34,179 bases of DNA, taken from contig CAIMUS010000180.1 in NCBI GenBank assembly GCA_903844665.1, forward strand, positions 1 through 34,179. The letters are read 5' to 3'. A program made the position numbers and the translations under genes. Under the pieces are notes generated by a model that was given only the letters and a program-made list of their open reading frames with translations, searched no databases and was not told where the DNA came from. This document shows, in pieces, positions 11,287 to 25,771 of this stretch (position 1 is its first letter; every line of letters begins with the position of its first letter). The stretch is from an uncultured Pseudomonadota bacterium (lineage in GTDB: Bacteria > Pseudomonadota > Gammaproteobacteria > Competibacterales > Competibacteraceae).

Positions 11287-12396
11287 ATGGTTAACGGAGG
11301 TAGCAAGTTGGGCGCGGGCAGCCCCACAGAGTTCATCCCGGTCGCCGGGGTCAGCGCCATGGAACTGGCCGATGCCGCCCAACTGGCCTCCCTCGCCGAT
11401 GAGACCCCGGAGGGACGTTCCATCGTGGTGCTCGCCAAGAAGCAGTATGAGCTGCGGGGCCGTAACCTGCATGAACTGGACGCTACCTTTATGCCCTTTA
11501 CCGCCCAGACCCGGATGAGCGGTGTCAACCTGGGCGACCGCCAGATCCGCAAGGGCGCGGCGGATGCTATCGCTGCCTGGGTGCAGGAAAGCGGCGGCGA
11601 CTTTCCGCCGCCAGTGCGCGCTGCCGTCGCGGCGGTCGCCCGCCAGGGCGGCACCCCGCTGGTGGTGGCGGAACAGCGGCGGGTGCTCGGGGTGATCCAG
11701 CTCAAGGATATCGTTAAAGGCGGCATCCGCGAGCGGTTCGAGGAACTGCGCCGAATGGGGATCAAGACCATTATGGTGACCGGTGACAACCCGTTGACTG
11801 CCGCCGCCATCGCCGCCGAGGCCGGAGTGGACGATTTCCTGGCTGAAGCCACACCCGAGGACAAACTCAAGCTGATCCGCGAACTGCAAAGCGGCGGGCG
11901 GCTGGTAGCGATGGCCGGCGACGGCGCCAACGACGCTCCGGCCCTCGCCCAGGCCGATGTGGCGGTGGCCATGAACAGCGGCACCCAGGCCGCCAAGGAA
12001 GCCGGCAATCTGGTGGATCTCGATTCCAATCCCACCAAATTGATTGAAATCGTCGCGATCGGCAAACAACTCCTGATGACCCGGGGGGCGTTAACCACAT
12101 TCAGTATCGCCAGCGACGTCGCCAAATATTTCGCCATTATTCCGGCGGCGTTCGCCACCACCTATCCGCTGCTGCAAACGCTCAACATCATGGCGCTCCA
12201 TTCGCCACGGAGCGCGATTCTGTCCGCCTTGATTTTCAATGCTTTGATCATCGTCGCGCTGATTCCCCTGACTTTACAGGGAGTGGCTTACAGCAAAGTC
12301 AGCGCCGTCCAACTGCTGCGCCGCAACGTGCTGATCTACGGGCTGGGCGGCCTGGTGGCGCCGTTCCTCGGCATCACTATGCTTCGCCCATCCTAA
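11287..12396 (+). pseudogene. kdpB: Truncated, inverted kdpB copy (C-terminal part)
   Basis: Homology to KdpB begins at about 11329 (EFIPVAG, equivalent to Glu327 of the intact KdpB) and continues through [25 protein letters not shown] and the membrane helices to GITMLRPS. The first 326 residues are missing, including the TGES actuator loop and the DKTGTIT phosphorylation site, and so are the last 13. GDGTNDAP has become GDGANDAP. The protein cannot be phosphorylated, so it is a pseudogene. It lies on the + strand, tail to tail with kdpA copy 2 (25 bp apart), whereas kdpB normally follows kdpA on the same strand. A local inversion and deletion therefore occurred, removing kdpC as well. Confidence 0.9.
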
Positions 12397-12420
12397 TCTT
12401 GCGTCAGTCCTGTTCTTTTA

Positions 12421-14217
12421 TCAGTGAGCCGGCCACAGCATAAGGTGTTCGGCCACCGGCCCCAGCGCCAGGCCGGGAATGTAGGTGAGGGCGCCGACGA
12501 TCAGCACGGTGCCGACCAGCAGGGCGACGAACAAGGGACCGTGGGTCGGCATGGTGCCGGCGGTCACGGGGTGATGTTTCTTCAGCGCCAGCGAGCCGGC
12601 GATAGCCAGTACCGGGACAATCACAGTGAAGCGGCCGAACCACATGGCGATAGCCAGCAAAATATTGTAGAAGGGGGTGTTGGCCGACAATCCTGCGAAG
12701 GCGCTGCCGTTGGTGTTGGCGGCGGAAGACAAGGCGTACAACACTTCCGAAAAGCCGTGCGGACCGGGGTTGAAAATGCCGGCCTTGCCGGCCGTCGTGG
12801 TTACCGCCACGGCGGTGCCGACCAGCACCAACAAGGGGGTGATCAGAATCGCCAGCGAAATCATCTTCATATCGTAGGCTTCGATCTTCTTGCCCAGGTA
12901 CTCCGGAGTGCGGCCGATCATCAGCCCGGCGATGAACACGGCCAGGATGGCGAACAGCAGCATTCCGTACAGGCCGGAACCGACCCCGCCGAACACGACC
13001 TCGCCAGTTTGCATCAGCCACATTGGCACGAATCCCCCCAAGGGGGTGAACGAATCGTGCATGGCGTTGACCGCGCCGCAGGAGGCGGCCGTGGTGATGG
13101 CGGCGAACAGACCGGAGGCGGCAATGCCGAACCGGGTCTCCTTACCTTCCATATTGCCGCCGGCCTGCAGGTCCGAGGGCTGCTGATCGACGCCGAGAGG
13201 GGTTAGCAGCGGATTGCCCTGTTGCTCGAATGTGATCGCCGCGACGGCGGCAACCACGAAAATCAATGCCATGGCTGCGAAGACAGCCCACCCCTGGCGG
13301 GCATCACCGACCCGGTAGCCGAAGGTATAGGTGAGGGCCGCCGGGATCAGAAAAATGGCCAGCATTTGCAGCAAATTCGCCAGGGCGGTCGGATTTTCAT
13401 AGGAATGGGCGGAGTTGGCGTTGAAGAAACCGCCACAGTCGCCGCTGCTGAGTACTTTGATGGCTTCCTGTGAAGCGACCGGACCCATAGGCAAAGTCTG
13501 GGTCTGCGTGGTCTTCTGCTCGATTACCGGCTGTCCCTGAGCATTCTTAAGGGGTTGGCTGTCCGGCCCAAGTGCGGGTTCCTCATAGGTCGTGGTGTCG
13601 AGTGTGGCGGCCTCCTGGTAGGGCGCGAAGTTCTGGATCACCCCCTGGCCCAGCAGGACGATGGCCAGGACCAGGGAGAGGGGCAACAGGATATAAAGCG
13701 TAGAGCGCGTCAGATCGATCCAGAAGTTGCCGATGGTGGTCGAAGAGCGACGGGCAAAGCCCCGGATCAGCACCAGCGCCACTGCGATGCCGGTGGCGGC
13801 GGAGAGAAAGCTCTGGACTGTCAAACCCAGCATCTGGGTCAAATAAGCCATGGTGGACTCGCCAGCGTAACCCTGCCAGCTCGTGGCGGTCACGAAGCTG
13901 ATAGCCGTGTTGAAGGCGGAATCAGGACTGACGTTGCCAAATTGCTGAGGGTTCAACGGCAGGAAAGCCTGCAAGCGCTGGATGCCATAAAAAAAGAGCG
14001 TCCCCAGGGTGTTGAACACCAGCACCCCCAGCGCATACTGCTTCCAGTTCATTTCCGTCTGGGCGCGGACGCCGCAGAGGCGGTACAGCCCGGTCCCCAG
14101 CCGGTTGCCAGGTCTTTGCTCGTCCATCACCCAGGCAATATAGAGTCCTAACGGCTTGGTGCAGGCCAGGAGGATGGCGAGGAAGGCTATCAGCAACACT
14201 ATAGCTTGAGTCGTCAT
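12421..14217 (-). CDS. kdpA: KdpA paralog with altered selectivity filter
   Basis: 598 residues from the ATG at 14217, which overlaps the kdpF2 stop. A longer upstream frame to 14385 runs through other genes and is rejected. The protein is nearly collinear with KdpA copy 1, but filter loops differ. P1 reads [11 protein letters not shown] instead of [12 protein letters not shown]2 reads [16 protein letters not shown] instead of [15 protein letters not shown], with one extra residue. P4 reads [13 protein letters not shown] instead of [14 protein letters not shown]3 is unchanged. In known KdpA proteins the GTNGGG glycine loop is essential for K+ selectivity. With no functional kdpB or kdpC alongside, this copy is probably decaying, though the reading frame is intact. 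Complementation by KdpB/C of locus 1 cannot be excluded. Confidence 0.9.
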
Positions 14218-14294
14218 GAGAAATCCTCCGGCCCGAGCAGCACGGCGAACAGATACACCAACAGCAAGACCACGGTAAGGGCGAGAATATACAT
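14214..14294 (-). CDS. kdpF: KdpF, second copy
   Basis: 26 codons forming one hydrophobic helix ([17 protein letters not shown]) and the tail GPEDFS. ATGA overlap with kdpA copy 2. A strong GGAAAGGGGGT ribosome-binding site precedes the start, as in copy 1. Membrane-embedded accessory subunit by homology. Whether it is used is uncertain because locus 2 lacks kdpB and kdpC. Confidence 0.8.
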
Positions 14295-14296
14295 GG

Positions 14297-14392
14297 CTAC
14301 CCCCTTTCCTTAAGCTTGGCGCAGCCGCTGACCAGAGCGGCCATGAGCAGGAAGAAGACGATGATAGCAAGCACAAAGAGAACATCCAACAT
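14297..14392 (-). CDS. 31-residue membrane microprotein preceding kdpF copy 2
   Basis: Reads [20 protein letters not shown] then [11 protein letters not shown]: identical to the protein at 9054-9149 except Trp2 to Leu and Val18 to Ala. One transmembrane helix plus a short basic tail with one Cys. It ends 2 bp before kdpF2. A longer upstream frame (to 14503) reads through the operator region and is not the start: the ATG at 14392 is matched by the copy-1 start. Function unknown. Confidence 0.7.
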
Positions 14393-15844: not shown

Positions 15845-16795
15845 CTACGAAGCCGCTTTTAGTGCAGATGAGGCGGCCTGCACCAGGCGTGCACCCTGTG
15901 GCCAGACATTCGCCGCCTCCCTCAGTACAAAGTCCTTGAACGCGAGGGCGATGGGTGAGAGCCGCTTGCCGCTGCGGTGCACGACATACCAGTGGCGCAC
16001 AATGGGAAAGGACTCCACGCTCAGCAGCACCAGGGCGCCGGTGCTTAATTCCAGATCCAGGGTGTGAATGGATACGATACCCAGCCCCAGGCCGGCCGCC
16101 ACCGCCTGCTTGATGGCTTCGTCGCGGGTCAGCTCGATACTGGTGGAGAGCGCCAACTGGTGTTCGGCGAGAAACCGCTCCACCGCTATCCGGGTGCCCG
16201 AGCCCGGCTCGCGCATTACGAAGTCTTCCGCGACCAGTTCTTGCAGGGGAATATTCCGCCGTCGCGCCAACGGGTGCTCCGGCGCGGCGATCACGACCAG
16301 GGGATTTTCCATAAAGGATTCACTGATCAGATCCATTTCCTCGGGTGGCTGGCCCATGATCGCCAGATCTCTCTCATTATTCTCCAACTGCCGCAGCAGG
16401 CGCTCCCGGTTGGTGACATCCAGATTGAAGGTGATATTCTGATATTGCTTGCAGAAAGCCGCCAGCAGCCGGGCGGCGAAATAATTCGCCGTGCTGACCA
16501 CCGAAATGGCCAGCCTGCCCCGCTTGACACCCTTGAGTTCGGCGAAGACTTCATCGACTTCCTGCAATTGTTGGGCGATGGCCCGGCTATAGCGGTACAT
16601 TTCGCGCCCGGCTTCGGTAAGATAGATTTTCTTCCCCAGTTGTTCGAATAAAGGCAAACCGAGATTGGCCTCCAACTGCCTGATCTGCATGGAAACCGCC
16701 GGTTGCGTCAAGTGCAGTTCCGTCGCCGCCTGGGTATAGCTCAGGTGACGTGCCACTGCCTCGAAGATACTAAGTTGGCGCAGAGTAAAGTGCAT
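15845..16795 (-). CDS. LysR-type regulator, CbbR-like
   Basis: 316 residues from the ATG at 16795. The longer open frame upstream to 17335 is antisense to rfbD and rejected. The N-terminal winged helix-turn-helix (LRQLSIFEAVARHLSYTQAA, LTQPAVSMQIRQLE, LPLFEQLGKKIYLTEAGREM) and the following region (LAISVVSTANYFAARLLAAF, DLAIMGQPPEEMDLI, MENPLVVIAAPEHPLA) closely match CbbR, which activates Calvin-cycle operons. CbbR is normally transcribed divergently from cbbL. Here the divergent neighbour is not RuBisCO and no cbb gene lies in the window, so it is orphaned. The function name is family-level. Confidence 0.8.
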   Translation of the reverse strand: MHFTLRQLSIFEAVARHLSYTQAATELHLTQPAVSMQIRQLEANLGLPLFEQLGKKIYLTEAGREMYRYSRAIAQQLQEVDEVFAELKGVKRGRLAISVVSTANYFAARLLAAFCKQYQNITFNLDVTNRERLLRQLENNERDLAIMGQPPEEMDLISESFMENPLVVIAAPEHPLARRRNIPLQELVAEDFVMREPGSGTRIAVERFLAEHQLALSTSIELTRDEAIKQAVAAGLGLGIVSIHTLDLELSTGALVLLSVESFPIVRHWYVVHRSGKRLSPIALAFKDFVLREAANVWPQGARLVQAASSALKAAS

Positions 16796-16848
16796 GGCGT
16801 GCTGGGTAGTAAGTAGGGCTTTTAGTAGAGGGAGCCGATTCTTTCTGG

Positions 16849-16897
16849 GGAGCGCTGGAAACCAGCGCCGCCGGCTGGAAGCCGGCGCTACCGGCCG
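16849..16897. repeat. Paired REP-like hairpins
   Basis: AGCGCTGGAAACCAGCGC is followed directly by CGCCGGCTGGAAGCCGGCG, two adjacent GC-rich stem-loops between the LysR gene and rfbD. They have the appearance of repetitive extragenic palindromes. They may also affect transcription termination. Confidence 0.5.
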
Positions 16898-17000
16898 GAC
16901 AGCGGCATCATAGCATGAGTCGAATCGGATGCCTGCGGTTAAGTCGGGAACCATGCCATTCGCCGCAGTTCGGCGTGCTTGCCGGAAGTCAGTCCCCCGA

Positions 17001-23045: not shown

Positions 23046-23260
23046 ACCCTGCTGATCGTCGCCCTGACCGGGCCGCTCGACGGCATCGCCCAGGTGCTCG
23101 CCCGAGACTTAGGTATCCACAACGCCATCGTGCTCGATAACGGCGGCAGCGTCGGCTGGCTATACTGGGCGGGGGGTAAGGCCAGACCGACTCTGCTGGT
23201 GGCCGGACCGAATCATCGGCCTAATGGAACGGTTTTTCTGGACCTTCCTACCAGCGGTTT
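23046..23260 (+). pseudogene. C-terminal remnant resembling a phosphodiester glycosidase
   Basis: The frame reads LIVALTGPLDGIAQVLARDL, GIHNAIVLDNGGSVGWLYWA and LLVAGPNHRPNGTVFL. A leucine-rich lead into LDNGGSVGW resembles the C-terminal LDGGGS region of phosphodiester glycosidase (NAGPA/DUF2233-like) proteins. There is no start and the 5' part is missing. It joins the ATPase remnant at 23045 and the next fragment at about 23230. Assignment is tentative. Confidence 0.35.
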
Positions 23261-23712
23261 TCCGCAACCGCAGGCTCACCACGGGCTTTCTGGCCACCTT
23301 GATCGACACGGTCTACGACCTGCAACCGGGCTTGCAGCCGGCGGATTACGCCCAGGCCGCCGCCCTGCTGCTGACGCGCCAGCGCAAGCGGGCGCTGGTG
23401 GTGTTGCTGACCAATCTGCGGGACGAAGACAGCGAGGAGTTGCAAGCAGCTTTACACGGGCTGAGCCGGCGTCATCTGTTCCTGCTCGCCAGCCTGCGGG
23501 AACGCATTCTGGGGGAGATTGTGCGCCAGCCGGTCCAGGATTTCCGTCAGGCCCGTCTGTACGCCGCCACCTGTCATTATCTGGCGGCACGGCGGCGTTG
23601 CCAGGAGAATTTCCGGCGGTTGGGTGGCCTGCTGCTGGAGGTGGAGCCGCAGGAATTACCGGCGGCCCTGGTCAATCGTTATCTGGAGATCAAGCGCGGC
23701 GGCCGGTTGTAA
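23224..23712 (+). pseudogene. C-terminal remnant of a DUF58 protein
   Basis: From about residue 20 the frame reads FLATLIDTVYDLQPGLQPAD, LLTRQRKRALVVLLTNLRDE, LHGLSRRHLFLLASLRERIL and LPAALVNRYLEIKRGGRL. These are the C-terminal blocks of DUF58 proteins, which normally have about 400 residues with a vWA-like domain and lie in MoxR-ATPase operons. Only about 140 residues remain. The ATG at 23224 lies in the preceding fragment and is not a natural start. No moxR-type gene is nearby. Could be a short expressed protein, but a remnant is more likely. Confidence 0.6.
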
Positions 23713-23941
23713 CGGCGGCCCGGAAAAAGCGCAAACATGAGCCGCAGTCCAGTGGTTGAAAACAACCAGTTGGAACGTATAACCCTTTCTTACCTTAACT
23801 GCATTGATCTACAGCAATAAAAGTGGCTGTATATCAATAGTTTTTAGAACCGGTTCGGAATTAAAATAGCACCTGTGAATGCAAACATTCTCCATAAAAT
23901 CCGAATCAATCGCCATAAGCTTATATTGCGAGGCTCTAACT

Positions 23942-25318
23942 ATGAAGCGGCTCACTCTTGCACAGGGAAGGTCATTCCTGGCGTTCAGTTGCTTACTGGT
24001 GCTGCCAGCCATTGCGTTCCTGGCTGCTCCCACCGCCAGGGCAGTACCCAGTTTTGCCCGTCAGATGGGTGTGGATTGTTCACAATGCCATACTCAGGCG
24101 TTCGGACCGGCCCTGACGCCGTTCGGCCAAAAATTTAAAATGTATGGCTACGTCTGGAGCAAACCGGATGCTCCCCTGTTACCTCTCGCCGGGATGATAG
24201 AGGGTCCATCTTACACCTGGACCAAGAAAGGACAGCAGGCGGGTGCCACCAAGAACTTCAGCGCCAACGACAATATCCAATTGGATCAGTTAAGCGGGTT
24301 CTATGGCGGAAAGATCCTGGATAAACTCGGCGCCTTCGGTCAGGTCACCTACGACGGCGTGGCCGAACAAACCCACTGGGACAATCTCGATATGCGCTTC
24401 GCCAGTGACGCCACGCTCGGCGATACCAGACTGGTTTATGGGATTACCGTCAATAACAATCCAACGGTTCAAGACCTCTGGAATTCCACGCCGGCCTGGG
24501 GATTTCCCTACGCCAGTTCTCCCGTGGCGCCCACCCCGGCAGCCTCCCCGTTGATCGCCAACGTAGCGCAACAGGTGTTGGGCGTCACCACCTACGCTAT
24601 GTGGAACGAACTGCTTTATACAGAAGCGGGGGCGTATCGGTCACTGTCGAATTCGACGCTGAACCGGCTGGGCGCCTCCAATCTGGGTGCATTCGAAATC
24701 GACAGTCTGGCTCCCTATTGGCGCCTGGCTCTGCAACACGACTGGTCCGGCCAGCTTTTTTCCATAGGGACTTATGGCCTTTACGCCCGCGGTAATCCCA
24801 GTTGGGACAGCAGCGGCGGCGATGATTATTATACGGACCTCGGCTTCGATGCTACCTACCAGTACATCGGGTCCCAGGATCATATCTTCGGCCTCGATAC
24901 GACTTATATCCACGAGAATCAAAACCTGTCTGCCAGCCATAAGCTGGGAAACGCCGAGCATTCCAACGATAACCTGAATACCTTCAACGCCAATATATAC
25001 TATACTTATCACCAAACCTATAAAGGTACGTTGGGTTATTTCAATACGACCGGCTCCCAGGATACCGGTCTTTATCAGCCCGGTTCTGTTTCCGGCAGCG
25101 CGAATGGCAAGCCGAACAGCAACGGCTGGATTATGGAACTGGATTACACCCCGTTTGGTAAGCCGGGTTCCTGGCTGGCGCCCTGGGCCAATGCCCGTTT
25201 TTCCTTGCAATACGTGATCTATAACAAATTCAACGGCCGCAATTCCAATTACGACGGCTCCGGCAGGAACGCGGACGATAACGATACCCTTTATCTGCTG
25301 GCGTGGTTTTTGTTCTAA
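23942..25318 (+). CDS. Monohaem cytochrome c-outer membrane barrel fusion (Cyc2-like)
   Basis: 458 residues from the ATG at 23942, preceded by GAGG at 8 bp. A signal peptide ends near residue 34 (TARA). Then comes AVPSFARQMGVDCSQCHTQA with one haem motif C46-x2-C49-His50, followed by ALTPFGQKFKMYGY. The rest alternates polar and aromatic residues, ends in LLAWFLF with a terminal Phe, and looks like a beta-barrel. This is the architecture of Cyc2, the fused haem-porin of iron oxidisers, including the PSFARQ-CxxCH-FGxxFK signature. Related unnamed proteins occur in methanotrophs. It should sit in the outer membrane and pass electrons across it. It converges on a HiPIP gene. The electron donor is not evident from the sequence. 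Confidence 0.75.
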   Translation: MKRLTLAQGRSFLAFSCLLVLPAIAFLAAPTARAVPSFARQMGVDCSQCHTQAFGPALTPFGQKFKMYGYVWSKPDAPLLPLAGMIEGPSYTWTKKGQQAGATKNFSANDNIQLDQLSGFYGGKILDKLGAFGQVTYDGVAEQTHWDNLDMRFASDATLGDTRLVYGITVNNNPTVQDLWNSTPAWGFPYASSPVAPTPAASPLIANVAQQVLGVTTYAMWNELLYTEAGAYRSLSNSTLNRLGASNLGAFEIDSLAPYWRLALQHDWSGQLFSIGTYGLYARGNPSWDSSGGDDYYTDLGFDATYQYIGSQDHIFGLDTTYIHENQNLSASHKLGNAEHSNDNLNTFNANIYYTYHQTYKGTLGYFNTTGSQDTGLYQPGSVSGSANGKPNSNGWIMELDYTPFGKPGSWLAPWANARFSLQYVIYNKFNGRNSNYDGSGRNADDNDTLYLLAWFLF

Positions 25319-25340
25319 GGGGCGGAAGGTCGACTCGAAG

Positions 25341-25367
25341 CCCTCTCCCTGTTCACCAGGGAGAGGG
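25341..25367. terminator. Bidirectional hairpin terminator between cytochrome-porin and HiPIP
   Basis: CCCTCTCCCTG pairs perfectly with CAGGGAGAGGG across a short loop, 22 bp after the cytochrome-porin stop, and is followed by GTTT. It lies between two convergent genes. The T-tract is short, so efficiency is uncertain. Confidence 0.6.
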
Positions 25368-25438
25368 GTTTATGAATTGAAGAAGACGGTTATTTATTGC
25401 CAACCGACAGGCTGCCAAAGGCAGCAGCCCGCCTTCGA

Positions 25439-25771
25439 TCAGCCAGCCTTCTTGGTCCAGGCGGTGCACCAGCCATTGGCATTAACCAATTGGCCCTGGA
25501 AGATACTGCAAGGACCCGAGGCGTCACCGGCTTTGCCGCTATAAAGCTGACAACTCTTGCAGAAGCGGTCGGCGCCGCCCCGCTTGCCCTGGTCGGCCTT
25601 GGCGGCATCGCTGACATAACTCAGGCTTTTCGCCATCGGGCTGTTTTCGTCCACTGCATTGGCCGCTTGCGCACCCCGGACCAGAATATTGCTCAACGGG
25701 ATGGCAGCCAATCCCATGGCGCCCAGCTTGATAAAACGTCTACGGCTGTTATCGGAAGTGTTATCGGACAT
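25439..25771 (-). CDS. High-potential iron-sulfur protein (HiPIP), Tat-exported
   Basis: 110 residues. A twin-arginine signal (SRRRFIKLGAMGLAAIPLSN) is cleaved near AQA at residue 36. The mature part carries four cysteines, C71-x2-C74-x13-C88-x13-C102, with the contexts FCKSCQLY, GPCSIF and GWCTAW. These bind the single 4Fe-4S cluster of HiPIPs, which shuttle electrons in the periplasm. It faces the cytochrome-porin gene tail to tail. In Acidithiobacillus a HiPIP-type protein (Iro) has been proposed to act in iron oxidation, so a relay with the neighbouring cytochrome is plausible but inferred. Confidence 0.92.
   Translation of the reverse strand: MSDNTSDNSRRRFIKLGAMGLAAIPLSNILVRGAQAANAVDENSPMAKSLSYVSDAAKADQGKRGGADRFCKSCQLYSGKAGDASGPCSIFQGQLVNANGWCTAWTKKAG

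What the first reader, a model, noticed from the sequence alone, without database searches (positions are those of the whole stretch)
23942..25771. Cyc2-like cytochrome-porin beside a HiPIP: a candidate outer-membrane electron route
The protein joins a single CxxCH haem site after PSFARQ to a beta-barrel, the architecture of Cyc2, the outer-membrane iron oxidase. It converges on a periplasmic HiPIP, a redox partner type used in related pathways. Together they could pass electrons from outside the cell to the periplasm. In a storage-polymer organism this would be an unexpected ability.
Basis: partly seen in the sequence, partly recalled or inferred. Interest (0 to 1): 0.7.

Follow-up and report, generated by a model that had tools for sequence, protein, structure and literature searches.

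The report
Cyc2-like outer-membrane haem porin
This storage-polymer bacterium carries an outer-membrane pore with one built-in haem, a distant relative of the Acidithiobacillus iron-oxidising protein Cyc2, next to a periplasmic iron-sulfur electron carrier, so it may trade electrons with iron or something else outside the cell, probably when oxygen is low; which way the electrons flow is unknown.

Summary
The 458-aa protein has a signal peptide, AVPSFARQ, one CxxCH and a confidently predicted 16-strand barrel. It converges on a Tat-exported HiPIP. In a tree with rus-operon Cyc2 of named Acidithiobacillus species it falls inside their full-length family, but in a separate subclade, and it misses two details of the published Cyc2 consensus. 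I therefore call it a Cyc2-like variant of unproven substrate. Relatives usually sit beside a diheme Cyc1-like or a monoheme cytochrome c; a HiPIP within 1 kb recurs in two other lineages. In this genome the pairing may still be incidental: HiPIP is family-wide at another locus, a hairpin separates the convergent genes, and two c4-type cytochromes exist elsewhere. New here: FNR/ANR-type boxes lie upstream of 24 of 114 family members (13 of 480 control ORFs), the window included (one mismatch), so low-oxygen expression is likely. The genome has form-I RuBisCO (3 of 39 family genomes), aa3 and cbb3-type oxidases, no photosynthetic reaction centre and no MtrB/PioB. Electron uptake such as micro-oxic Fe(II) oxidation is my first choice; electron export under anoxia is a serious rival.

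The parts
23942..25318 (+). Cyc2-like cytochrome-porin gene (458 aa)
   Evidence: ORF; haem motif; tree with Acidithiobacillus Cyc2; AF2 barrel
23942..24043 (+). signal peptide MKRLTLAQ...PTARA
   Evidence: read from sequence
24077..24091 (+). CSQCH, single c-type haem site
   Evidence: sequence; C46, C49, H50 invariant in 63 sequences
24185..25315 (+). 16-stranded beta-barrel domain (residues 82-458)
   Evidence: AF2 secondary structure, porin matches Z 20-22
23804..23817 (+). TTGATCTACAGCAA, FNR/ANR-type box with one mismatch, 138 bases before the ATG
   Evidence: family-wide enrichment
25341..25367 (.). 11-bp inverted repeat between the convergent genes, probable bidirectional terminator
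   Evidence: sequence and fold
25439..25771 (-). HiPIP, Tat-exported 4Fe-4S electron carrier (110 aa)
   Evidence: PF01355 1.3e-21, TIGR01409

Best explanation
The gene encodes an outer-membrane cytochrome-porin of the Acidithiobacillus-type Cyc2 family: a 16-strand barrel with an N-terminal single-haem domain, expected at the periplasmic mouth (inferred from porin topology; I could not inspect coordinates). Most likely it is expressed when oxygen is low, under an FNR/ANR-type regulator. It takes electrons from a soluble donor, most likely Fe(II), and hands them to a small periplasmic carrier: the neighbouring HiPIP or one of the genome's c4-type cytochromes. These feed the cbb3- or aa3-type oxidase. 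Shown: sequence, family placement, predicted fold, the recurrent carrier-gene neighbourhood, the upstream box. Inferred: localisation, haem loading, partner, regulation in this organism. Least certain: substrate and direction.
For: Fold. Tree with rus-operon Cyc2 of A. ferrianus, A. ferriphilus and A. ferrivorans in one 114-row family, SH-aLRT 98. A Cyc1-like diheme cytochrome lies next to 56 of 118 loci, mostly 0-200 bp downstream on the same strand; a monoheme cytochrome takes that place in the window's sister clade, including two same-family genomes. HiPIP within 1 kb in Caballeronia and in L143/L148. FNR-type boxes: 24/114 against 13/480, p=3e-10, with at least 18 state changes on the tree. 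Form-I RuBisCO in the genome, 3 of 39 in the family. aa3 and cbb3-type oxidases. No reaction centre and no MtrB/PioB.
Against: The window subclade is remote from any biochemically tested Cyc2. The window protein has M where 110 of 114 relatives have T or Y, and two extra residues between CH and PxL (90). The box carries one mismatch and no regulator was tested. RuBisCO could serve another lithotrophy. No carrier gene is co-directional with it in this genome.
Confidence: 0.5

Rival explanations
1. Same protein, opposite direction: under anoxia it exports electrons from the quinone pool through bc1 and HiPIP or c4 to extracellular Fe(III) or another acceptor, as a redox valve during anaerobic use of stored glycogen and polymer.
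For: FNR-type boxes upstream of the family. Literature: in A. ferrooxidans, Cyc2B/Cyc1B and the HiPIP gene hip are tied to anaerobic Fe(III) reduction (PMC8790237; PMC10715153). phaC lies beside the Cyc2-like gene together with an FNR-family regulator in L079 and L072.
Against: Form-I RuBisCO and two terminal oxidases fit a lithotrophic electron donor as well or better; pio iron-oxidation genes are also under FNR-family (FixK) control (PMC3050613), so the box does not settle direction.
Confidence: 0.27
2. HiPIP is an incidental neighbour (compatible with either direction): it is the family's general respiratory carrier moved next to this gene, and the true partner of the cytochrome-porin is a c4-type cytochrome encoded elsewhere.
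For: HiPIP in 27 of 39 family genomes at another conserved locus and not beside a Cyc2-like gene there; convergent genes with a hairpin between; no FNR-type box before HiPIP; two c4-type genes elsewhere.
Against: HiPIP recurs within 1 kb of Cyc2-like genes in two other lineages; by rough arithmetic from the HiPIP frequency about 0.03 such cases are expected in 118 loci.
Confidence: 0.45
3. It serves metal stress rather than energy metabolism, oxidising Cu(I) or another toxic reduced metal at the cell surface.
For: RND pumps of the CusA/CzcA type lie beside 6-8 family loci, among them G121, one of the window's nearest relatives.
Against: No metal-resistance gene lies beside the window copy (20, 41); most loci have cytochrome partners instead.
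Confidence: 0.1

Closest known systems
Cyc2 of Acidithiobacillus (rus operon, 'Cluster 2' of Keffer/McAllister)
   Same: Full-length homology (31-34% identity), N-terminal haem domain plus 16-strand barrel, same 114-row clade; invariant barrel residues such as D147, D178, W180, D299, D303 and E325 are shared
   Different: Separate subclade; no cyc1-cox-rus operon; T/Y changed to M; two residues inserted before PxL; FNR-type box upstream
PAFARQTGM-C-CHFQHFP type cytochrome-porins (probably the Cluster 1 Cyc2 of neutrophilic iron oxidisers; this naming is from memory)
   Same: Haem-domain motif and overall architecture
   Different: Homology detectable only over the haem domain and nearby; deep separate group in the tree; no FNR-type boxes in 20 examined
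Pio system of Rhodopseudomonas palustris (PioA/PioB/PioC)
   Same: Outer-membrane conduit with a HiPIP and FNR-family control
   Different: PioA/PioB is a decahaem-porin pair, not a one-haem fusion; no MtrB/PioB in this genome

Membership tests
Cyc2 cytochrome-porin (Keffer et al. 2021, PMC8406198) | signal peptide and single CXXCH near the N-terminus | tested here: met
   Sequence; haem site invariant in 63 sequences
Cyc2 cytochrome-porin (Keffer et al. 2021, PMC8406198) | 16-strand porin fused to the cytochrome domain, at least 365 aa | tested here: met
   AF2, 16 strands, 458 aa; porin matches
Cyc2 cytochrome-porin (Keffer et al. 2021, PMC8406198) | AXPXFAR[Q/K][T/Y] before the haem site | tested here: not met
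   AVPSFARQM: all but the last position; M occurs once in 114 family members
Cyc2 cytochrome-porin (Keffer et al. 2021, PMC8406198) | PXL with P four residues after the CXXCH histidine | tested here: not met
   PAL is present but P is at +6; the +2 insertion is shared by 12 of 114
Cyc2 cytochrome-porin (Keffer et al. 2021, PMC8406198) | groups with a verified Cyc2 in a tree | tested here: met
   Same SH-aLRT 98 family as rus-operon Cyc2 of named Acidithiobacillus species, not in their subclade
Cyc2 cytochrome-porin (Keffer et al. 2021, PMC8406198) | match to FeGenie Cyc2 HMMs | not testable with these tools
   HMMs not held
Cyc2 cytochrome-porin (Keffer et al. 2021, PMC8406198) | iron oxidation by the protein | not testable with these tools
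   needs biochemistry
HiPIP (PF01355) | four-cysteine 4Fe-4S domain and Tat export | tested here: met
   77 bits against cut-off 22; TIGR01409
HiPIP as photosynthetic donor | photosynthetic reaction centre in the genome | tested here: not met
   No PF00124 match in a 98.9% complete genome

The most novel reading that the evidence does not exclude
Cyc2-family haem porins outside the classic iron oxidisers form an oxygen-limited, FNR/ANR-controlled electron-exchange module with interchangeable periplasmic carriers (c4, monoheme c or HiPIP), and this polymer-storing organism uses the HiPIP version to exchange electrons with its surroundings, perhaps coupled to CO2 fixation.
Probability: 0.22. Interest if true: 0.75.

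Novelty: new variant of a known kind. Interest (0 to 1): 0.5.

Why it matters
Cyc2 is used as a marker gene for iron oxidation, but the function of most of its diversity is untested. A low-oxygen regulatory signature that recurs in one half of the family and was absent from 20 members of the other half gives a testable split between iron-oxidiser Cyc2 and other roles. In storage-polymer bacteria of wastewater type, any outside electron route would change how their anaerobic/aerobic redox budget is modelled.

Tried and rejected
Pfam, NCBIfam and PDB sequence searches gave nothing for the cytochrome-porin. I looked for a published amino-acid motif or a cyc2-FNR report in open papers and found none. 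I rejected 'HiPIP is a photosynthetic donor' and 'no barrel'. An operon of the Cyc2-like gene and HiPIP is rejected, since the genes converge. I considered the lxa low-oxygen locus of Burkholderia as a homologous setting: a paper lists a cytochrome c, a BON protein and USPs there, but I could not show that a Cyc2-like gene lies in it, so this stays a lead. No conclusion was drawn from which folds were absent from the structure hit lists.

Full report
WHAT IS THERE. The reported span holds two convergent genes. The + strand gene (23942-25318) encodes 458 aa: signal peptide, AVPSFARQMGVDCSQCH, then a long domain. The - strand gene (25439-25771) is a Tat-exported HiPIP (PF01355, 1.3e-21). The first has no significant match in Pfam, NCBIfam or PDB sequences. 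Between the stop codons lies an 11-bp hairpin at 25341-25367, and the genes face each other, so they are not an operon.

FOLD. AlphaFold2 on an alignment of 63 window and genome-collection homologues gave pLDDT 86, pTM 0.85, short helices around the haem site and 16 strands from residue 82 to 457. VIA-align matches OmpC/OmpF porins at Z about 22 over 300 residues and OprO (4rjw) at Z 20.8. Keffer et al. describe Cyc2 as a 16-strand porin with N-terminal cytochrome, similar to OprO/OprP (PMC8406198). I did not see coordinates, so 'haem at the barrel mouth' is inference.

KINSHIP. A profile search of 370 genomes of the class gave about 33 full-length matches and about 50 matches confined to the haem region. 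Their tree splits into two deep groups. The one genome-collection scan returned 80 full-length relatives with record titles. Among them are Acidithiobacillus ferrianus, ferriphilus and ferrivorans; in ferrianus and ferrivorans I checked that the gene is followed by a diheme Cyc1-like gene and then what read as cytochrome oxidase genes, i.e. the rus-operon cyc2. In the 124-row tree the window protein and these Cyc2 proteins lie in one 114-row family (SH-aLRT 98). The window protein is in a four-row subclade (98; 100/96 in the smaller careful tree) with G121, G337 and G266, far from Acidithiobacillus. Its sister clade carries the two other Cyc2-like genes of its own taxonomic family (G006, G013). 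It breaks the published consensus at two points: M for T/Y (1 of 114) and P of PxL at +6, an insertion shared by 12 of 114. A screen by the published motif would have dropped it.

NEIGHBOURHOOD ACROSS THE FAMILY. Of 118 rows (three are duplicates), 56 have a c4/Cyc1-like diheme cytochrome close by, mostly 0-200 bp downstream on the same strand, five a monoheme cytochrome at that spot by the same HMM scan, and four a HiPIP within 1 kb: the window, Caballeronia SBC1 (which also has the diheme), and sister lineages L143 and L148 (both also with a diheme). G121 has a HiPIP about 7 kb away. A published study already notes that cyc2 often adjoins mono- or diheme cytochrome genes (PMC10715153). So 'conduit plus periplasmic carrier' is the common pattern and HiPIP an occasional carrier. 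The 80 named loci were picked by similarity to an Acidithiobacillus-side sequence, so these frequencies are not unbiased.

HIPIP IN THE OWN FAMILY. 27 of 39 genomes of the taxonomic family have HiPIP; in those examined the orthologue of the window HiPIP (49-63% identical) sits at other loci, mostly one conserved locus, and no Cyc2-like gene is near. G006 and G013, the other two Cyc2-like carriers, have no HiPIP and a monoheme cytochrome instead. Thus HiPIP has a general role, and its position here is either recruitment or accident. Solved relatives of the HiPIP are listed, but the genome has no reaction-centre gene, so a photosynthetic role is excluded.

REGULATION. TTGATNNNNATCAA with at most one mismatch occurs within 250 bp upstream of 24 of 114 family genes, against 1.1% of dinucleotide shuffles and 13 of 480 other ORFs in the same loci (Fisher p = 3e-10). 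Its presence changes at least 18 times on the tree, so it is not one inherited event, though gain and loss are not separated. None of 20 members of the other deep group has it. The window copy is TTGATCTACAGCAA at 23804-23817, one mismatch; in the window as a whole about one such match is expected by chance, but few would fall in this spot. HiPIP has no such box. FNR-family control of iron-oxidation genes has a precedent in pioABC (PMC3050613). In A. ferrooxidans a second Cyc2/Cyc1 pair and HiPIP are linked to anaerobic Fe(III) reduction (PMC8790237), so low-oxygen control does not fix direction.

THE ORGANISM. The window carries phaC, a phosphate acetyltransferase and glgC, supporting the storage-polymer view. 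The genome has form-I RuBisCO (cbbL frame with a cbbS-like ORF beside it, read by eye), seen in 3 of 39 family genomes and in neither of the other two Cyc2-like carriers. It has an aa3- and a cbb3-type oxidase, two unlinked c4-type cytochromes and no MtrB/PioB conduit. The taxonomic name was not available; Competibacteraceae is my guess from the gene content.

VERDICT. Electron exchange across the outer membrane is likely; Fe(II) as donor is the best guess; HiPIP as partner is about an even bet; direction is open. Under the strict rule the protein is a Cyc2-like variant, not a certified Cyc2. The least expected result is the low-oxygen signature of this half of the family.

Noticed in passing
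L087:8364-13304: Beside a Cyc2-like gene and a diheme cytochrome lies an open frame of at least 1,647 aa with 55 CxxCH motifs, a very large multihaem cytochrome running off the locus end.
   Followed up: no
L079:4003-7341 and L072:4022-7392: A phaC-type polymer synthase lies directly upstream of a Cyc2-like gene, with an FNR-family regulator nearby; the window also has phaC about 2.3 kb from its Cyc2-like gene.
   Followed up: partly
L064, L065, L081, L082, L085, L130: CusA/CzcA-type RND pumps neighbour Cyc2-like genes in several lineages, hinting at a metal link.
   Followed up: partly
window 11287-14385: A second potassium-pump set next to the complete kdp genes looks rearranged: a kdpB C-terminal piece on + faces a kdpA on -. 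Degraded duplicate or assembly join.
   Followed up: no
window 15848-16951: LysR-type regulator that resembles CbbR by eye; form-I RuBisCO lies on another contig.
   Followed up: partly
window 23224-23709: Short DUF58-like piece just upstream of the Cyc2-like gene, probably a gene remnant.
   Followed up: no
CP084173.1 49686-51053 (L056): An Acidithiobacillus ferrooxidans plasmid carries a Cyc2-like gene (38.5% identical to the window protein) followed by a c-type cytochrome; Acidiphilium plasmids give the same match scores, so the gene appears mobile between acidophiles.
   Followed up: partly
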